DNA of 33,607 nucleotides. It comes from Rubripirellula obstinata (GTDB lineage Bacteria; Planctomycetota; Planctomycetia; Pirellulales; Pirellulaceae). Location of the stretch: NCBI RefSeq assembly GCF_001642955.1, contig NZ_LWSK01000062.1, forward strand, positions 1-33,607, written 5' to 3'. Each line of letters begins with the position of its first letter. The stretch's first letter is position 1. This document shows positions 107 through 22,448 of this stretch, in pieces. The notes under the pieces are model-generated. The model was not told the DNA's origin. It saw nothing but the letters and a program-made list of their open reading frames with translations, and searched no databases. The position numbers were made by a program, and so were the translations under genes.

Positions 107-220
107 GCGAGTTTCGCTACGACACTCTTTGTAGCGAAAGTCGCCAAGACTTTCGGTTTGTCGAATTGCCGAAACTCTTGGCGAGTTTCGCTACGACACT
201 CTTTGTTCCGGCGGTCCTTA
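107..220. repeat. Truncated copy of the palindromic element, touching the TlpA-like gene stop
   Basis: A 64-bp core at 131-194 matches the cores at 19304-19367 and 19409-19472 in reverse orientation, with about one difference. It consists of two hairpins, each with an 8-bp stem and a 5-nt loop (CGAAAGTC-gccaa-GACTTTCG, then CGAAACTC-ttggc-GAGTTTCG). The right end reads into GGCGGTCCTTAG, matching the terminus of the 19277-19509 element. No matching left terminus is visible. Instead 107-130 repeats 181-204, so this copy is truncated and partly re-duplicated. The stop codon of the neighbouring minus-strand gene (218-220) lies inside the CTAAG at its edge. Bases 1-106 hold nothing I can name. 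Confidence 0.8.
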
Positions 221-1591
221 GTCTTTCTTCGACTTGCTTTTGGTCGCCTTCGCCGGCTTCCCAGACGCGATTCGGCCACCCACCGTCAAAACATCTAACT
301 CATCCGTAAGACGTTTTTCCAAGGCTTCCTCGCCGGCAAATCCTAGGTGAACTGATTCGACCAAGCCATCTTTTCCAATCAAAACGGTTTGCGGAATTGC
401 GTCTGCAATAAAACCATCCGCAATTTTCCCTTCCTCGTCCATCAAGATATTCATCTCGATTCCCGTGTCCTTCAGAAAGTCCTGCACCGTTTCAAGGTCT
501 TGGCCGGTATTGATTTCCAGCAATACGACGCCTTTCTTTGAATAGCGGTCCGTCACCTTCTTGACGGTTGGCATCCCGGCAAGGCAGGCCTTACAAGTGG
601 TGGTCCAAAAGTCCACGACGACGACTCGCCCCTTCAGCGATTTCAGATCAAACTTGCGCTGATCAACGGTTTGCGTTTTAAAACGAGGGGCGGGCTGTCC
701 AAGTAACGGGTGATAGCCCTTCGATCCCGCAATCTGCTGGAAATAGTCTTCAAGCGACTCGTACTCCGTCGCACCTTTGGCAGGCTTAAACGTAAACAAG
801 TTATCCTTCAGGTCGCCTTTGACACGCCAAGTCAAAAAGTCGTAACGCACTTGGTACGAAAATCCAGCCGGAACATGAACCTGATCCGAAGCGGCAAGCA
901 TTGGCGTCATGTCGATCAGCAATCGAAGTGGTTGCGGATCTTTTTCGTCATCGGACACCCACAAATCCCAAGTCACCGCGTCCGCCTGAACTCCATGCAA
1001 ATGGATCGCCGGAATCTTTCCCTTGAACGGCTTTCGATCCACCACTTCGATCGACTTCATCGCCGCAACAAAAGTGATGCTGGGGTCGCAGCCAGCCATC
1101 GTCAACGCGAGCACGGGTTCCGGGTAGGGACCAAGGGGGACTGTCAAAGCCGTGACTGCTTTTTGAATCGATACGGCGTTTGGGAGTCGGAAAAAAGCGT
1201 CGGGAGCCATCGCTGCGACCATTTGTTTTCCGTCGCAATAAACTCGCGTGCGTTGTTCGGGCTCTTTCAAGTAAACCGTGAACTTGCCAGGATTCTTTGC
1301 AGCGATCTGAAAGGTTGCTTCGCGACTTTCCACGACTTCGCCCGACATGACCGAATCGGTCAGCATGCGTACCGTTGCTCGAGACACTTTCGCATCACGA
1401 ATCGAATCAATCAGCGGCATCAGTGCGGCGCGAACTTCTTCGGTAATTTGAATCGAAAAGTCTTTTTCCGATGACTTCTTTGGTTTGGGTTTCGCTTCGT
1501 CGCCCTGGACGACGCCCGCGGGAATCAAAAGCAGAATCGCGAAATAAAGAAAAGTAGTTGTAGTTCGGTGCATGAAGTTTAAACCTGACAT
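218..1591 (-). CDS. TlpA-like thioredoxin with N-terminal DUF2092-like domain, exported
   Basis: A predicted exported thiol-disulfide protein of 457 aa. The N-terminus has a hydrophobic signal segment. Met7 (1573) would give an even cleaner signal peptide than Met1, and neither start has an obvious Shine-Dalgarno. Residues ~45-270 resemble the DUF2092 / outer-membrane lipoprotein-sorting fold seen in planctomycete proteins. Residues ~296-430 are a thioredoxin domain with a CKAC active site at C333/C336, preceded by DFWTTT, and a cis-Pro segment (AIPQT). The C-terminus is Lys/Ser-rich. It is the last gene of the operon that begins near 12928, 76 bp after the 2469-aa protein, so it may keep cysteines of the giant ectodomains or another envelope substrate in the right redox state; that is inference. 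Its TAA stop lies in the edge of a palindromic element. Confidence 0.9.
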   Translation of the reverse strand: MSGLNFMHRTTTTFLYFAILLLIPAGVVQGDEAKPKPKKSSEKDFSIQITEEVRAALMPLIDSIRDAKVSRATVRMLTDSVMSGEVVESREATFQIAAKNPGKFTVYLKEPEQRTRVYCDGKQMVAAMAPDAFFRLPNAVSIQKAVTALTVPLGPYPEPVLALTMAGCDPSITFVAAMKSIEVVDRKPFKGKIPAIHLHGVQADAVTWDLWVSDDEKDPQPLRLLIDMTPMLAASDQVHVPAGFSYQVRYDFLTWRVKGDLKDNLFTFKPAKGATEYESLEDYFQQIAGSKGYHPLLGQPAPRFKTQTVDQRKFDLKSLKGRVVVVDFWTTTCKACLAGMPTVKKVTDRYSKKGVVLLEINTGQDLETVQDFLKDTGIEMNILMDEEGKIADGFIADAIPQTVLIGKDGLVESVHLGFAGEEALEKRLTDELDVLTVGGRIASGKPAKATKSKSKKD

Positions 1592-16761: not shown

Positions 16762-19548
16762 TTAGTGGTTAAAGACAAATTCGCGGCTATTAAGCACTGC
16801 CCAGAAAACGTCCTGTAACGCGGCGATCTTGTTTTTCTGATCATTCAGCGATGCGATCAGCTTTGTCTTCTCTTCTTGCGACGGCAAACGAGAAAGTGCT
16901 CGGACATAAATTCGATCAATGATCGTTTCAGGTGAGAGCTTTTGTTTATCCAGCCAACGGTTGATAACTTTGCCGGATACAATTTTGTTGTGTACCGAGT
17001 TGCCGTTCAAAAGGTGCAAAGCTTGCGAAAGCGAAGGGCTGGTCGATGCCTCGCAATCGCACGCGGTTGTCCTTGGCGAGCGACCGAACGCGGTCAGGAA
17101 ATAGTTTGATGTCGTCCCGTCCGCAATTTGCACCGCACGTGAACCAAGCGGCAATCCCTTGAATTTGTCTGGCGATTCGGTGACGGATGAGATGCAATCA
17201 AGCAAGCTTTCAGCCGGAATACGCCGAATCGTCGCTGATGCGTAGTTTCGTTGATCGTGGGCATTGGATTCATTTGTTTTGGTGCTGCGCCCGTACGCCT
17301 TGCTGTTGCAAATGTCACGCACCAGAGATCGAAAATCAAACTTGTAGTCGACAAGCCGCTTGCCCAATTCGTCAAACAGTTCCGGATTGCTGGGTGGATT
17401 GCTAATGCGAATATCATCGACGGGATCAACGATGCCGCTTCCCATCATGTGCGCCCAAACCCGGTTCGCGATTGATTTGGCAAAGTACGGATTGTCGGGA
17501 TTCGTCAACCAATCGGCCAACACCACTCTTCGGTCTTTGCCCTTCGTGTTTGGCCGATCCCCGCCCAGGAACGTTGGCGGGACAGGTCTTTCGGTCAGCA
17601 AATGCTTGACCTCGCCTTTAAAGCGATTGAAAACGATCTTCTCGCGGTAGTCTTCGGCGTTCTTGCGACCGACCTGGGAAAAGAACGACGCGAATCCGTA
17701 GTAGTCGTCCATGGTCCAACGATCAAAGGGATGGTTGTGACATTGGGCACATTGAGTTCGTATCCCCATGAAGACCTGAGCAACATTCTCTGCAGTTTTT
17801 AACGTGTCTCGTTCAAGCTCATAGAAATTGGTTGCCGGAGCGGAGAATGTGCCACCCGAACTGGTCAACAATTCTCGCACCATTTCATCAATGGGAACAT
17901 TGCGGGCGAATTTATCAGTCAACCAATTCGCGTAGAGGTAGGCTGATTTGTAGCTCACTTGATTGGTGCTTTTAATCATCAACAACTGAGCAAACTTCAT
18001 CGCCCAGATTTCGCTGAATTCCTTGCGATCGAGAAGCTGATCGATCAAACGAGCCCGCTTATCATCGGCTGGATCGTTTACAAAGCGATGGAATTCTTTT
18101 TCGGTCGGCAACAAGCCAACGATGTCGATGGTCGCACGCCGCAGGAACTCTTCGTCGCTGCATTGATCGCTCGGCAGCATCCGCAATTGCCCCAATTTGC
18201 GATCAACAAGTTGATCGATGTAGTTTGCGTGCGGATCAATTTTCGGAGCGTCGTATTTCAGGTTCTCTGGCAGGACCAAAACCTGGCTGCCTTGGGTGTG
18301 AGTTCCGAAACGAGCCATCACAAAGGCTTCGCCACGAAGCCCCGCGGTCACAAAACCATCGCTATCAATCGCAGCACTGCTGCTATTGTTAGAGGAAAAC
18401 GAAGCTAACCGAGTGACGTCCCGCGTGGTGCCATCTGCATAGCTTGCGATCGCCACGAACTGTTGCCCCGAAACCTCGCCTTCACCCTTGCTTTGAATCA
18501 CCGCTTGTGGCGGATAAATTGCCAGCGAAGTCGCTTCCAACGACGCAGAATCCTTGTCAGCCTTGCCCGCAGCTTTATCTGAAGCCTTATCTGCGGGAAC
18601 ACCATCCTGCAACCATTCCAGCATGGTGGCGTAGTAGTCGCTGTCCTTATCGAACAGTTTGCCGCCGGTGTGCGGTACCGCGCCGATCGATTTCTTGATC
18701 AACAAGCTTTCACTTGGGCGTGCCAGATTGATTCGCCGAACGCCAATTTCCCGAGTGATTCGGTAGTAGTCACCCGCTGGATCAAACCCAAACAGGCTAA
18801 GCCTAAACCCATCTTTCCCGCGTGATGCACCATGACAAGAACCAGTGTTACAGCCTGACCGCGTCAGCACAGGCATCACGTCTTTCGCGAAACTAACCGC
18901 AGGACGCTTGGATCCACCGGAGATTTCGATTGGGATACGCACCTTGTCATTACCGTAAGACGCGATGAGGTTGGTCTTGCCGTCGGCGATCGGAAAAACC
19001 GTGTTTTGATTCAGTTTTACGATCTTCGAGTCGCCGACCGACCAATCAACTTCTTTACTAACATCAACGGTCACGCCGCTGTCTTTCCGAATCATGGCAA
19101 CGAAACTTTGGAAATCGCGCGCGGAACCCAACTGGATCGAGGGGGGATAAACACTCAATTGATCCGCCGACTGTTTCGCCAGCGTGTCAGTCAATTGCTT
19201 CGCGGTCGATTGCCGGCCCTGGTTTGAATGCTTCGCTTCGGCGGGATCCGCCGCGGAAACTGGTGCAGAAATCAGGCTTAGGACCGTCGGAACAATAAGT
19301 GGTGTAGCGAAACTCGCCAAGAGTTTCGGCAACTCGACAAACCGAAAGTCTTGGCGACTTTCGCTACCAGTTTTCCAGCCACTAATTATTTCAACGGACC
19401 TTAGTGGCGTAGCGAAACTCGCCAAGAGTTTCGGCAACTCGACAAACCGAAAGTCTTGGCGACTTTCGCTACCAATTTTCCCGCCACTAATTATTCCGAC
19501 GGTCCTTAGTACCAGGCAGCAAATCAATAGCCATGCATTTGTTTTCAA
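16762..19548 (-). CDS. Exported DUF1549/DUF1553 protein with cytochrome-like motifs and an in-frame element insertion
   Basis: About 928 aa from a TTG at 19548. The frame stays open to an ATG at 19896 (1044 aa, ATGA overlap with the upstream stop), but that extra 116-residue part is translated palindromic repeat with no hydrophobic leader. From TTG the protein starts (M)KTNAWLLICCLVL, then 76 residues from an inserted element containing SESRQDFRFVELPKLL twice, then SLISAPVSA with a cleavage site before ADP. A domain with CNTGSCHG follows, then a BIG2-like domain, DUF1549 with CAQCHNHPFDRW, and DUF1553 to the C-terminus. These families occur by the dozen in planctomycetes, next to DUF1501 genes. 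Start and leader are the uncertain parts; the body is clear. Confidence 0.88.
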   Translation of the reverse strand: MKTNAWLLICCLVLRTVGIISGGKIGSESRQDFRFVELPKLLASFATPLRSVEIISGWKTGSESRQDFRFVELPKLLASFATPLIVPTVLSLISAPVSAADPAEAKHSNQGRQSTAKQLTDTLAKQSADQLSVYPPSIQLGSARDFQSFVAMIRKDSGVTVDVSKEVDWSVGDSKIVKLNQNTVFPIADGKTNLIASYGNDKVRIPIEISGGSKRPAVSFAKDVMPVLTRSGCNTGSCHGASRGKDGFRLSLFGFDPAGDYYRITREIGVRRINLARPSESLLIKKSIGAVPHTGGKLFDKDSDYYATMLEWLQDGVPADKASDKAAGKADKDSASLEATSLAIYPPQAVIQSKGEGEVSGQQFVAIASYADGTTRDVTRLASFSSNNSSSAAIDSDGFVTAGLRGEAFVMARFGTHTQGSQVLVLPENLKYDAPKIDPHANYIDQLVDRKLGQLRMLPSDQCSDEEFLRRATIDIVGLLPTEKEFHRFVNDPADDKRARLIDQLLDRKEFSEIWAMKFAQLLMIKSTNQVSYKSAYLYANWLTDKFARNVPIDEMVRELLTSSGGTFSAPATNFYELERDTLKTAENVAQVFMGIRTQCAQCHNHPFDRWTMDDYYGFASFFSQVGRKNAEDYREKIVFNRFKGEVKHLLTERPVPPTFLGGDRPNTKGKDRRVVLADWLTNPDNPYFAKSIANRVWAHMMGSGIVDPVDDIRISNPPSNPELFDELGKRLVDYKFDFRSLVRDICNSKAYGRSTKTNESNAHDQRNYASATIRRIPAESLLDCISSVTESPDKFKGLPLGSRAVQIADGTTSNYFLTAFGRSPRTTACDCEASTSPSLSQALHLLNGNSVHNKIVSGKVINRWLDKQKLSPETIIDRIYVRALSRLPSQEEKTKLIASLNDQKNKIAALQDVFWAVLNSREFVFNH
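19277..19509. mobile_element. In-frame palindromic element (MITE-like) with 5-bp direct flanks
   Basis: Plus-strand CTTAG occurs at 19277-19281 and again, as a direct repeat, at 19505-19509; in gene sense it is CTAAG. Between these lie inverted ends (GACCGTCGGAA and TTCCGACGGTC, each continuing with an AGTGG/CCACT block) and two 64-bp cores at 19304-19367 and 19409-19472, 105 bp apart. Each core is two hairpins with 8-bp stems and complementary loops (GCCAA, TTGGC). The inserted length is 228 bp, exactly 76 codons, and the internal period is 35 codons, so the gene's frame is kept. No transposase is encoded, so it would depend on an enzyme supplied elsewhere. Confidence 0.85.
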
Positions 19549-19892
19549 ATCCCAGAAGACACAGAGATTGCAACAGTGTTTGCGATGCGCCTCTCTCTTT
19601 GGGAAAGGTCGCGTCGAAGCGAGGGAAACTGCCCAACGCCGTGAAGGGTTTCTTAATCGTTTAACCGCGTTGGGCATCGCCCCGCGCGTCGTGCGGCACC
19701 GAACGCGTGGGGCGATGCCCACGCAGCTAAACGAATCTAACACGTGTTTTCCGAGACCAAAACTCTTCACGGCGTTGGAAACTGCCCCCTGCAACGTTCT
19801 CCCCTGACGGCCGATCAAACGTCCGGCCTCCCTCGCTGCGCGGTGGGGGAAGATGCTAACGTTCGCGGAGAAGTATCGAATTTTTAGCATGA
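19549..19892. repeat. Gap holding a nested palindrome (19633-19778)
   Basis: If the DUF1549/DUF1553 protein starts at 19548, this 344-bp gap holds no gene. CCAACGCCGTGAAG (19633-19646) faces CTTCACGGCGTTGG (19765-19778), an exact 14-bp inverted pair. Inside, 19672-19688 and 19704-19720 pair over 17 bp with one mismatch (GGGCATCGCCCCGCGCG). AAACTGCC occurs as a direct repeat beside the outer arms. The frame happens to be open across it, which produces an Arg-rich translation that I regard as spurious. Confidence 0.75.
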
Positions 19893-22448
19893 TCATTCTT
19901 GCTCCTGCATCTGTCGCAATTGCTCGAGCCTCGATAGCGCCTTGGCTTGTTTTGGCTTGGCCTTTTGCTTGGATACTTTTTTGGCCTGAACCTTTTTCGC
20001 ATTCGTCTTTGGCGGCAACGGCTTGTCGATCCTCAGCTCTCCCGTGCCATTGGTTTGCACAACGACTTCATCACCAATTTTTGCACGAGCAATACAGACC
20101 AAGGTTTTATGCTTCCCAGGCTTTGCATCTTTAGACAGAACGATTGGAAAGCTGAGCGTTTTGGTCTCCGATGTAACTGCTTGTTTGGGTGACGGACTGG
20201 TCACGCCAGCGGGAAGTCCGGCTAATTCAATTTCCACATTCTCGGGCAGGTCGCGTTTGATGTTCAAGCCAACCGAAACGATCGCTTCTGTCCCCAATTC
20301 TGCTGCAACGCGAGGAAATTCAAAGTCAAAATACTCAGCCTGAACATCCAACATGATTGCTTGAGAACTGAATGCGATGTTCCCGAACCTTCCCTTGTAG
20401 GTGGCGACTAAAATGATCGGCCATTTCCCAATCGCAGCACCTCCGTTGGCGGTCATCGGAATATCAGCTTCGACTTTACCCTTTTCAATCTTCCGGCTGT
20501 TGTTGACCGCGATGCCTGGTGGGTTGTAAAGCGTTCGCAATTGAACCTGATCCTCGAACCCTTCATCGCGGATGATCTTGACTTTCAAATTCTTGCTACC
20601 ACGACGCACAATTGGCGTTTGCGGCTGAACGAGTTCAATCTGGAAAGGCGGGGGCTCAGTGACGGCCGCCGCAGCGAAGTCGGTTCGATAGCCGAACATC
20701 ATTCTGCGGTTTTGTCCCAAGACAATTTTGTGAAGCTGGGACATGGGCAGGCTGGCAACCGAACGATCGCCCGACTTCTTTTCGGAAGCTGTTCCATGAA
20801 CGCGAAACAAACTTGATGAGTAATCCGCATCGGCAGATGCCGTTAATAAGACTGGTATTTCAGATCGTCCGGCGGGAATGGGAAACAATTTTGCGGTCAC
20901 GCCATCGGGTAAGCCATCGACCGTAAGTTCGATCTCGCCGTTGTATCCGGCGCGAGTCACCTGAGCCATTACCGCAGTGTGTGCACCGATCGGAACAGCC
21001 GCCACGGTTGCGTTGTCGCGGCGAGTTTCCTTTAGGCCAATCGAAAATGACGGAACCGCCTTCGTGAGTTCAACCCGATACTGATGCAGCTCGCTTCCGC
21101 CGCGCAGATGGTCAAATATTCTAAGTGTGTATTGACCATCGACAGGGCAGGTAAACTCGATCGACGGATCTTTCGCGGTACCAATGTCATCCGCCGACGA
21201 CAATGATTTTGAATTGGGACCAAACACATTCATGACCGCGTCAAGCGGCGACCGAAACGGTTCTCTTGCAAAGCACTGAGCACGAAACTTGTCGCCTTTC
21301 TTCGCCTGAAAAGCAAAGCAATCGTAGTCTCCTGGTTTTTCAATGACTCCGCAAAACGCCGCGGGTGCCTCGGCAATTTGAGGTTTACGGAAACTGTCGT
21401 TGGGTTCCACCTCGGTAATCATTTTCAAATCGTTGACGCGAATCCAGTTCGGCGAGGGGCTGATGCCTGTTTCGTCTTCGGTGGTCACGCCCCAGCGATC
21501 CGTGACGCGTACATGTCCGGTGGAGGATTGTTGAGGCACGGTTGGCAAAAGAGTGCTCGGCAGGTCTACGGTCGCTTCGCTGCGCGAACCATCGATCGAA
21601 ATCAATTCAGCGGTCAAGCTTTTGCCTGATTCGGTACCCGGTTTTGTCGCGACTGGAACCGCCGCGACTGGCCGGGGAAAACTGCCGACGTGAAGTCGGT
21701 AGCCACAAATCGGACCACCGACAAAAGAACTGTCGCGAACCATCACTGAGTAGACGCCATCTTTGGGCGCAACAAACGAACACACGCCGTCTTGTGCTAA
21801 CAGCGCCGAATCATCGCTCGACGCGACCTCGAAACGGCCTTCGTCCAGAATGGCAATGAAGGGATCCAGGATATTGCGGTTATTGATCGTGTAAGACAAA
21901 CGTATGCCTTCGATTTCAGCAGTCAGTCGTTGCCCCGCTTTTAAATCGAACTGGTAAAAATCGACATCTTCTCGACCAGCGATCCCTTCGATCGTGGTCC
22001 CGAAACACTTTCTGGAATGATCCCAGTCAACTTTCTGGGGCGAATCGAAACTGTTGTTCGGTTCGACCTCGTTTGTGATTGGCATCGAACCGACACCGAT
22101 CAGCTTGATGTTTGAAACGCCCGTTCGCGTGACGACTCGAATCGGATACAGACCGGGTGACAGCGCGGCGTCCGTTTTCAACTTCACGGATACCTGTTTG
22201 CCATTGATGGCTTTGACTTCGATAATTTCAACGCCCGGTTGGTCGGCGATCGCGTCGTAAGCATCGCCCAATCGCAAGCCTTTGAAAACGATGGTCGCCT
22301 CTTCGCCGCGAACGACGCCCAGCGGTTTGTTCTGTTCGATCAGCGGGAAAGAAGCGATCGCGGACGACACACCTAGCATCAGGCTGAACGCGAAAACGCT
22401 GGCCGGTCGGATACTGAACCAGTGAATATGAATTGCGGCATCTTTCAT
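19893..22448 (-). CDS. Exported protein with two pre-peptidase C-terminal (PPC) domains
   Basis: An 851-aa exported protein. The signal peptide covers the first ~33 residues (FAFSLMLGVSSAIA). Two PPC-type beta-sandwich domains are announced by the typical opening N/TEVEPNNSF (residues ~125 and ~345, the second TEVEPNDSF), each followed by DVDFYQF/DYDCFAF and a ...GxYxxxV/LRxxD-like strand. The rest appears beta-rich. The C-terminal ~45 residues are Lys/Ala/Gln-rich, possibly wall- or nucleic-acid-contacting. It lies 39 bp after the DUF1501 gene and before the DUF1549/DUF1553 gene, the usual planctomycete cluster order. Its ligand and function are unknown. The TGA at 19893-19895 overlaps the ATG at 19896, which I do not think is the start of the next gene. 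Confidence 0.9.
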   Translation of the reverse strand: MKDAAIHIHWFSIRPASVFAFSLMLGVSSAIASFPLIEQNKPLGVVRGEEATIVFKGLRLGDAYDAIADQPGVEIIEVKAINGKQVSVKLKTDAALSPGLYPIRVVTRTGVSNIKLIGVGSMPITNEVEPNNSFDSPQKVDWDHSRKCFGTTIEGIAGREDVDFYQFDLKAGQRLTAEIEGIRLSYTINNRNILDPFIAILDEGRFEVASSDDSALLAQDGVCSFVAPKDGVYSVMVRDSSFVGGPICGYRLHVGSFPRPVAAVPVATKPGTESGKSLTAELISIDGSRSEATVDLPSTLLPTVPQQSSTGHVRVTDRWGVTTEDETGISPSPNWIRVNDLKMITEVEPNDSFRKPQIAEAPAAFCGVIEKPGDYDCFAFQAKKGDKFRAQCFAREPFRSPLDAVMNVFGPNSKSLSSADDIGTAKDPSIEFTCPVDGQYTLRIFDHLRGGSELHQYRVELTKAVPSFSIGLKETRRDNATVAAVPIGAHTAVMAQVTRAGYNGEIELTVDGLPDGVTAKLFPIPAGRSEIPVLLTASADADYSSSLFRVHGTASEKKSGDRSVASLPMSQLHKIVLGQNRRMMFGYRTDFAAAAVTEPPPFQIELVQPQTPIVRRGSKNLKVKIIRDEGFEDQVQLRTLYNPPGIAVNNSRKIEKGKVEADIPMTANGGAAIGKWPIILVATYKGRFGNIAFSSQAIMLDVQAEYFDFEFPRVAAELGTEAIVSVGLNIKRDLPENVEIELAGLPAGVTSPSPKQAVTSETKTLSFPIVLSKDAKPGKHKTLVCIARAKIGDEVVVQTNGTGELRIDKPLPPKTNAKKVQAKKVSKQKAKPKQAKALSRLEQLRQMQEQE

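What the first reader, a model, noticed from the sequence alone, without database searches (positions are those of the whole stretch)
19277..19509. Palindromic element inserted in frame inside a signal peptide, with a 5-bp target duplication
Seen: CTAAG (gene sense) flanks a 228-bp unit on both sides as a direct repeat. The unit has inverted ends (GACCGTCGGAA / TTCCGACGGTC). The unit plus one flank copy is 76 codons, and its two internal cores are 35 codons apart, so the frame survives. Removing the unit and one flank copy joins CTG GTA CTA AGC CTG and gives AWLLICCLVL-SLISAPVSA, a textbook signal peptide that is broken in the present sequence. Protein-coding palindromic elements are known from Rickettsia (RPEs); this would be a planctomycete counterpart, with a translated signature SESRQDFRFVELPKLL. 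Inference: a non-autonomous mobile element that tolerates translation.
Basis: partly seen in the sequence, partly recalled or inferred. Interest (0 to 1): 0.82.

Follow-up and report, generated by a model that had tools for sequence, protein, structure and literature searches.

The report
Jumping DNA translated inside bacterial genes
A 120-letter hitch-hiking DNA element, whose ends match those of a known transposon family and whose middle is a common bacterial hairpin repeat, sits in frame inside this secreted protein's export signal and in at least two other genes of the same planctomycete, one of them apparently its only tsaB gene, so its letters are probably read into protein.

Summary
Real, but redrawn. 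The segment is one insertion of a 120-bp element (36 loci examined, window included) plus a 105-bp tandem duplication in place. The target duplication is 3 bp (TWA), not 5: 15 of 19 copies of exactly 120 bp have identical flanking triplets, and two copies have empty paralogous sites with a single TWA. The ends match ISAzo13-family insertion sequences; two complete 1326-bp copies in a relative have TTA and TAA duplications. So it is an ISAzo13-type MITE. Its 64-bp interior is an inverted pair of GTAG-tagged REPs (a REPIN), mostly bare in relatives. Insertion adds 123 bp, 41 codons, open on both strands. Three of 36 loci lie in frame inside supported genes: this DUF1549/DUF1553 gene and another secreted protein (both in the signal peptide), and apparently the only tsaB. 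The fetched orthologues lack it. It works like Rickettsia palindromic elements but is another lineage and mostly intergenic. MITEs with REPs, REP dimers in palindromes, and translated repeats are each in print; I found no report of the combination with a parental IS. Translation is inferred, not shown.

The parts
16762..19548 (-). Host gene: secreted DUF1549/DUF1553 protein (PF07583, PF07587); proposed TTG start at 19548
   Evidence: protein matches in 60 of 60 genomes searched, own included, many of them paralogues
19281..19505 (.). Inserted element, 225 bp = 120-bp MITE plus 105-bp internal tandem duplication
   Evidence: 120-bp copies
19278..19280 (.). Target duplication TTA, first copy
   Evidence: TWA duplications in other copies, empty sites of two other copies
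19506..19508 (.). Target duplication TTA, second copy
19281..19303 (.). Left terminal inverted repeat arm, ISAzo13-IS type end
   Evidence: IS ends
19483..19505 (.). Right terminal inverted repeat arm (outermost)
   Evidence: IS ends
19304..19367 (.). REPIN 1: two inverted GTAG-tagged REPs with 12-nt spacer
   Evidence: arms 19304-19329/19342-19367; same core in relatives
19409..19472 (.). REPIN 2 (copy in the tandem duplication)
19299..19403 (.). 105-bp tandem repeat, copy 1 (element positions 19-120 plus TTA)
19404..19508 (.). 105-bp tandem repeat, copy 2
   Evidence: 99 of 105 identical
19509..19548 (-). Proximal part of the interrupted signal peptide (MKTNAWLLICCLVL)
19252..19278 (-). Distal part of the signal peptide (SLISAPVSA) just after the element

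Best explanation
The segment is a non-autonomous derivative (MITE) of an ISAzo13-family insertion sequence whose interior is a REPIN (an inverted pair of GTAG-tagged REPs). An ISAzo13-type DDE transposase, acting in trans on ends of the type GGACCGTCGGAACAATTAGTGGCG, inserts the 120-bp unit at TWA and duplicates those 3 bp, adding 123 bp = 41 codons. One frame on each strand is open end to end, so when the unit lands in a gene in a suitable phase it is carried as a translated 41-residue insert; other phases or orientations would be lost by selection. In this gene the insertion split the signal peptide, and a later 105-bp (35-codon) tandem duplication of most of the element kept the frame. Shown from sequence: element boundaries, 3-bp duplication, empty sites for two copies, matching IS ends and duplications, open frames, absence from the fetched orthologues. 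Inferred: movement by an ISAzo13 transposase, translation, and retained export and function of the host protein.
For: Copies: 35 fetched own-genome loci plus the window. Of 19 copies exactly 120 bp long, 15 have identical flanking triplets: 9 TTA, 5 TAA, 1 TAT; none of the 19 shows the TTA/TAA pairing that mere palindrome extension would give. Empty sites: for the L043 copy, 4 other places in the same genome with one TWA and no element; for the L036 copy, 1 (flanks of 19 copies were compared with fetched DNA only, 2 of 19 gave such sites). Parent IS: 4 loci in 3 named planctomycete assemblies carry TTA + a 24-bp end identical to the MITE consensus right arm, the L228 one followed by an ORF piece scoring as ISAzo13 N-terminus; two complete 1326-bp IS in G214 with inverted ends and TTA or TAA duplications, transposase ORF 321 bits against a 200-bit cut-off for NF033519. 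REPIN: element matches in 69 of 199 family genomes, own included, in the listed rows mostly through the core; in most of the 29 fetched relatives' loci the core has no recognisable arms. In-frame: tsaB (TIGR03725, 132.7 bits, cut-off 69.3, with the insert in place), no second tsaB-like locus seen in the own genome; the L059 gene has GGGGGGA before its ATG and no start codon in the open frame between codon 2 and codon 95. 0 of 29, 0 of 29 and 0 of 16 fetched orthologue loci carry the end sequence at up to 2 mismatches (the 16 include three genes fetched twice and one weak match).
Against: No intact ISAzo13 IS with these ends is seen in the own assembly; the only PF07592 copy (C85) appears broken and lacks the ends, so the helper must be lost, unassembled or external. 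4 of 19 copies of 120 bp lack an identical triplet. Only 3 of 36 loci lie inside supported genes, so translation is not the element's usual state. Open frames of this length are not rare, and stop avoidance in the copies is marginal (simulation P 0.028 to 0.071). Of two REPIN-free MITEs in G193 only one has matching triplets. No proteomic data; the TTG start has no clear Shine-Dalgarno; the nearest orthologues are 72-74% identical, so no same-species empty site of this very gene was seen.
Confidence: 0.82

Rival explanations
1. The unit is a REPIN/BIME moved by a RAYT (Y1 transposase); the outer arms are merely a palindromic target or decoration, as Di Nocera et al. describe for some REP dimers lying in larger palindromes.
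For: The core is a GTAG REP pair found without arms in most of 29 fetched relatives' loci; 11 Y1_Tnp matches in the own genome; REP dimers inside palindromes are in print (PMC3733652, Results part 2).
Against: The mobile boundary in this genome is the outer arm: TWA duplications and empty sites lie there. The same arms bound complete ISAzo13 IS and REPIN-free MITEs (L248, L255). None of the 11 Y1_Tnp loci (flanks up to about 1.5 kb, up to 6 mismatches) carries this REP.
Confidence: 0.1
2. In the window gene translation does not start before the element: it begins at an in-element TTG, and the element's own tail (MPKLLASFATPLIVPTVL) plus SLISAPVSA serves as a new signal peptide.
For: In-frame TTG codons at 19332 and 19320; the resulting MPKLLASFATPLIVPTVLSLISAPVSA-ADP has a basic residue near the start, a hydrophobic stretch and a plausible cleavage end.
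Against: TTG only, no Shine-Dalgarno seen; best 11-residue hydrophobicity is lower (2.26) than from the TTG at 19548 (2.54); not possible for the L059 gene, which has no in-element start.
Confidence: 0.2
3. The window gene is a decaying pseudogene and the open frame is chance.
For: The signal peptide is interrupted; the start codon is weak.
Against: 928 codons intact from the TTG, both DUF domains over cut-off; frame kept through two events (123 and 105 bp). Does not explain tsaB.
Confidence: 0.1
4. Assembly artefact at a repeat.
For: At least nine contigs have a copy within about 250 bp of an end, this one included (a copy at window 131-221); the tandem copy number may be wrong.
Against: The two cores differ at 6 of 105 positions; 19 copies of 120 bp in different flanks, 15 with matching triplets.
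Confidence: 0.03

Closest known systems
ISAzo13 family insertion sequences (NF033519; Pfam PF07592 DDE_Tnp_ISAZ013)
   Same: Terminal 24 bp and TWA target duplication
   Different: 120 bp, no transposase gene, REPIN interior
GTAG-tagged REPs / REPINs (Di Nocera et al. 2013, PMC3733652: Results parts 1-2 and passages seen; REP families are listed there for R. baltica)
   Same: GTAG tag, palindromic REP, inverted (HH) dimer; dimers inside genes and inside larger palindromes are described
   Different: Here the mobile boundary is the outer IS-type arm with a TWA duplication; no Y1 transposase gene flanked by this REP found. Figure 1 with the R. baltica consensus was not visible, so identity of the REP families is not tested
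Rickettsia palindromic elements (RPEs)
   Same: Palindromic, in frame in genes, open peptide
   Different: A likely parent IS is found here; GTAG not CGTC core; 3 of 36 loci in supported genes against nearly half for RPEs as reviewed in PMC10969869 (passages)
QMITE2 of Coxiella burnetii (PMC5896051, passages)
   Same: A MITE that contains a GTAG REP
   Different: 7-11 nt duplications of variable sequence, mainly 3' UTR and intergenic
Enterobacterial RU-2 element (Delihas 2007, PMC2759123, passages)
   Different: Enterobacterial, different element; no parental IS in the passages seen

Membership tests
ISAzo13-derived MITE | Short, no transposase gene, inverted ends | tested here: met
   120 bp, 23-bp arms
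ISAzo13-derived MITE | Ends shared with an autonomous IS of the family | tested here: met
   24 bp identical to the consensus right arm in L227-L230; 2 differences of 24 in the complete IS L234/L251
ISAzo13-derived MITE | Same target duplication as the IS | tested here: met
   TTA and TAA in the two IS copies; identical TWA in 14 of 19 MITE copies of 120 bp
ISAzo13-derived MITE | Helper IS with these ends in the same genome (usual, not required) | tested here: not met
   Only one apparently broken PF07592 locus without these ends; draft of 307 contigs
ISAzo13-derived MITE | Mobilised by the ISAzo13 transposase | not testable with these tools
   Needs a transposition assay
REPIN (interior only) | Two GTAG-tagged palindromes in inverted orientation | tested here: met
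REPIN (interior only) | Occurs on its own, dispersed | tested here: met
   No recognisable arms in most of 29 fetched relatives' loci
REPIN (interior only) | RAYT gene flanked by the same REP in this genome | tested here: not met
   0 of 11 Y1_Tnp loci
Rickettsia palindromic element | In-frame, translated insertion in genes | tested here: inconclusive
   In frame inside supported genes at 3 of 36 loci; translation inferred only
Rickettsia palindromic element | CGTC-tagged core (RPE-4, RPE-6) | tested here: not met
   Core is GTAG-tagged; RPE tag from PMC3733652 passages
Rickettsia palindromic element | Sequence homology to RPE families | not tested
   No RPE sequence was compared

The most novel reading that the evidence does not exclude
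A transposon-derived, REPIN-carrying element whose two strands both encode an open 41-residue peptide ending in a hydrophobic run (LPKLLASFATPLIVPTVL or LSLPIFPPLIVPTVL), so that insertion into a signal peptide is self-healing: the element supplies a new hydrophobic region upstream of the native cleavage site. Translatability would then be a maintained trait of the element, a route by which mobile DNA spreads through genes of secreted proteins.
Probability: 0.17. Interest if true: 0.78.

Novelty: new variant of a known kind. Interest (0 to 1): 0.52.

Why it matters
Protein-coding palindromic elements are best known from Rickettsia, and how they move is, to my knowledge (recalled), unsettled. 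Here such an element has a likely parent transposon, a defined 3-bp target, empty sites in the same genome and an in-frame copy in an apparently single-copy tRNA-modification gene (essentiality of tsaB is recalled). That makes the question of how mobile DNA enters proteins without killing them directly testable in a free-living bacterium.

Tried and rejected
5-bp duplication: rejected. IS5/PIF-type parent (suggested by TWA): PF13340 gave 0 matches, and the 7 PF01609 loci had only two 4-mismatch matches to the 16-bp end (L210, L211), at the limit of the scan. RAYT as mover of the whole unit: disfavoured. Viral spread: the end pattern had 0 exact matches in viral contigs. Selection for open frames: 19 of 19 copies open on one strand and 18 of 19 on the other (the one stop is on the unread strand of the L059 copy), but simulation gave only P 0.028 to 0.071 depending on the set and count; substitutions are partly shared between copies (73 distinct of 110), so I draw no conclusion. 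Of 31 ORFs of 100 aa or more that overlap copies, 27 were scanned with Pfam (one search also held two neighbouring ORFs and the window gene); the 20 gave nothing, and 4 were not scanned. L053 (TPR protein) and L054: the element is probably upstream of the true start; left out of the count of three. TsaB was compared with solved structures, but in the TsaB/YeaZ entries only about its first 134 residues aligned, so the insert could not be placed. Structure prediction was not used, because its stated rule does not cover stretches from the genome tools. In one search the L067 spanning hit was dropped: it is that copy's own tandem partner. First run of the BLAST script failed on a typing slip and was repeated. 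Literature searches for a planctomycete or ISAzo13 precedent; beyond the papers cited I saw none in the listings; subscription journals are mostly not held.

Full report
OBSERVATION. The described features are in the sequence: CTTAG on both sides, inverted ends, two cores 105 bp apart, 76 codons in total, and an open frame on the minus strand. The gene carries DUF1549 and DUF1553 over cut-off. From a TTG at 19548 the reading without the insert is (M)KTNAWLLICCLVL-SLISAPVSA-ADP, a standard-looking signal peptide (judged by eye and Kyte-Doolittle, no SignalP available).

THE ELEMENT. The DNA has 71 matches in its own genome at E<=0.001 (40 of 141 first-look candidates scored; several matches per locus and both strands of a palindrome are counted). 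I fetched 60 stretches: 40 meant to hold copies (L031-L070) and 20 with lone ends or related cores (L071-L090). By the filter, 35 of the 40 hold element copies; with the window that makes 36 loci. Nineteen copies are exactly 120 bp, of the form GGACCGTCGGAACAAT...ATTGTTCCGACGGTCC. Their flanking triplets are identical in 15 of 19 (9 TTA, 5 TAA, 1 TAT); the other four (L037, L047, L052, L061) differ. In the whole scan, which included variants and chance pairs, 16 of 33 rows matched. Since the middle base varies between copies but agrees within a copy, this is a duplication and not an extension of the palindrome. Empty sites confirm it: the L043 copy sits in a repeat of which four other copies in the same genome (three in L065, one in L058) have a single TWA and no element, and the L036 copy has one such site in L037 (19 copies compared with fetched DNA). 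So insertion adds 120 + 3 = 123 bp. In the window copy, element positions 19-120 plus the TTA are present twice in tandem, adding 105 bp. Other copies also show internal tandem growth (L002, L009, L015), with units of 49 bp in L058, not a multiple of three, but 45 bp in L049, which is one.

THE PARENT. An exact scan of the genome-contig collection (84,980 species) for TWA plus the end gave four loci in three planctomycete assemblies (records near the window's own genome may be left out). All four start TTA + GGACCGTCGGAACAATTAGTGGCG. The L228 locus runs into an ORF piece that matches the N-terminus of the ISAzo13 transposase model (E 1.5e-14, 53.9 bits, below the whole-protein cut-off of 200; 95 residues given); the same piece gave only a weak HTH_36 match in Pfam (E 0.026). 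In 241 family genomes, own included, 18 had a match to this IS start, a few of them only through the terminal 24-28 bp or other short stretches. Two copies in G214 are complete: 1326 bp, inverted ends GGACCGCCGGAACAATTAGTGTCG, duplications TTA and TAA, with a 331-residue ORF at 321 bits against the 200-bit cut-off of NF033519. The same genome holds a REPIN with one perfect 16-bp arm beside it (L204). G193 holds two 110-bp elements with these ends and no REPIN; one has a TAA duplication, the other no match. The own genome has only one PF07592 locus, in two pieces, one with a stop, without these ends.

THE CORE. Positions 24-87 are GTAG-palindrome, 12-nt spacer, palindrome-CTAC. In 69 of 199 family genomes, own included, the element matches, in the listed rows mostly through this core only (four candidates scored per genome, list cut). 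In the 29 relatives' loci fetched, the core usually has sharp GTAG/CTAC limits in unrelated flanks; 8 of 29 have something arm-like at up to 5 of 16 mismatches, several at chance level, L183 (2 mismatches) and L204 (0) convincingly. This is the anatomy of GTAG REPs in head-to-head dimers (PMC3733652; Results parts 1-2 and passages seen) and of REPINs (PMC3116915, search listing only; the definition is recalled). None of 11 Y1_Tnp loci in the own genome carries this REP within about 1.5 kb. A second carrier in the same genome, 131 bp with CTAGTATTCC...CTACTAG ends, holds a related REPIN.

IN GENES. Three of 36 loci lie in frame inside supported genes. (a) The window gene. (b) L059: ATG preceded by GGGGGGA, then MLRPAFL-[element]-SHLFCSLCFFIGFAAIDAEVTNA-QSFEL; in the open frame the only other start codons in the stretch examined are codon 2 and codon 95 (an ATG 17 codons upstream lies beyond a stop), so the product must run through the element. 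No Pfam family matched this protein; support is from orthologues, in 14 of 40 genomes, own included, one of them weak. (c) L038: tsaB, TIGR03725 at 132.7 bits against 69.3 with the insert in place; orthologues in relatives align on either side and skip the insert. The only other locus of this superfamily seen in the own genome is a 346-codon frame that I take for TsaD (not separately tested). Fetched orthologue loci carry no ends at up to 2 mismatches (0 of 29, 0 of 29, 0 of 16). The REP core is absent too, except in L133, where an array lies before the tsaB match, not in it. These loci were the best-scoring ones returned, not all matches. TsaB essentiality is recalled, not tested.

MECHANISM. 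Best reading: a MITE moved by an ISAzo13 transposase, with a REPIN as passenger; in genes only phases that stay open persist. The consensus has one frame open on each strand whatever the triplet, and four of six with TAA, so survival in a gene needs no special coincidence. Shown: boundaries, duplication, empty sites, parental ends, frames. Inferred: mover, translation, retained function.

AGAINST. No helper IS seen in the assembly; low genic fraction; only marginal sign of selection for open frames; nearest orthologues 72-74% identical, so the empty site of the window gene itself is inferred by reading frame and signal-peptide logic, not seen. The frame is also open for 116 codons upstream of the TTG to an ATG that overlaps the stop of the preceding ORF, so the true start is not certain.

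KNOWN OR NEW. MITEs containing a GTAG REP (PMC5896051, passages), REP dimers in palindromes and in genes (PMC3733652), repeats forming part of a signal peptide (PMC2759123, passages) and in-frame palindromic elements (PMC10969869, passages) are each in print. I saw no paper that joins them with a named parental IS, or for planctomycetes, in the listings. Hence a new variant of a known kind.

Noticed in passing
window 19634-19777: A second, unrelated 144-bp palindromic element (CAACGCCG...CGGCGTTG) with a 9-bp duplication GAAACTGCC, just upstream of the gene; related copies in many fetched own-genome loci. With its duplication it adds 153 bp, also a multiple of three.
   Followed up: partly
window 19548-19896: The gene's frame stays open 116 codons upstream of the proposed TTG, through the second element, to an ATG overlapping (ATGA) the stop of the preceding ORF 19893-22448.
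   Followed up: no
window 131-221: Another copy of the same element close to the contig start; at least nine contigs have a copy within about 250 bp of an end, so the copy number is probably underestimated.
   Followed up: no
L043, L083, L084, L089, L090 (own genome): A second carrier, 131 bp, ends CTAGTATTCC...CTACTAG, nearly identical copies, holds a related REPIN: the same kind of cargo in two unrelated palindromic carriers.
   Followed up: partly
L133 109-1140, L188, G003:C1 about 849-853 kb and 7871-7874 kb: In a relative (G003) the REPIN core forms long tandem arrays, with periods of about 83 and 87 bp at two places and one array just before tsaB.
   Followed up: partly
L069 2976-2990; L047 3148; L055 3137; L042 3022: Elements abut or slightly overlap the 3' ends of neighbouring ORFs (a MraW methylase at L069, a GAF/response-regulator gene at L055, an acetyl-CoA hydrolase-like gene at L042) and may supply their stop codons.
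   Followed up: no
L073 and L075 (own genome): Element-like ends next to other palindromic interiors without this REPIN.
   Followed up: no
L214 1250-1315 (own genome, C210): A REP pair about 190 bp before a PF01609 transposase match, the only one of the 18 transposase loci scanned that has this REP nearby.
   Followed up: no
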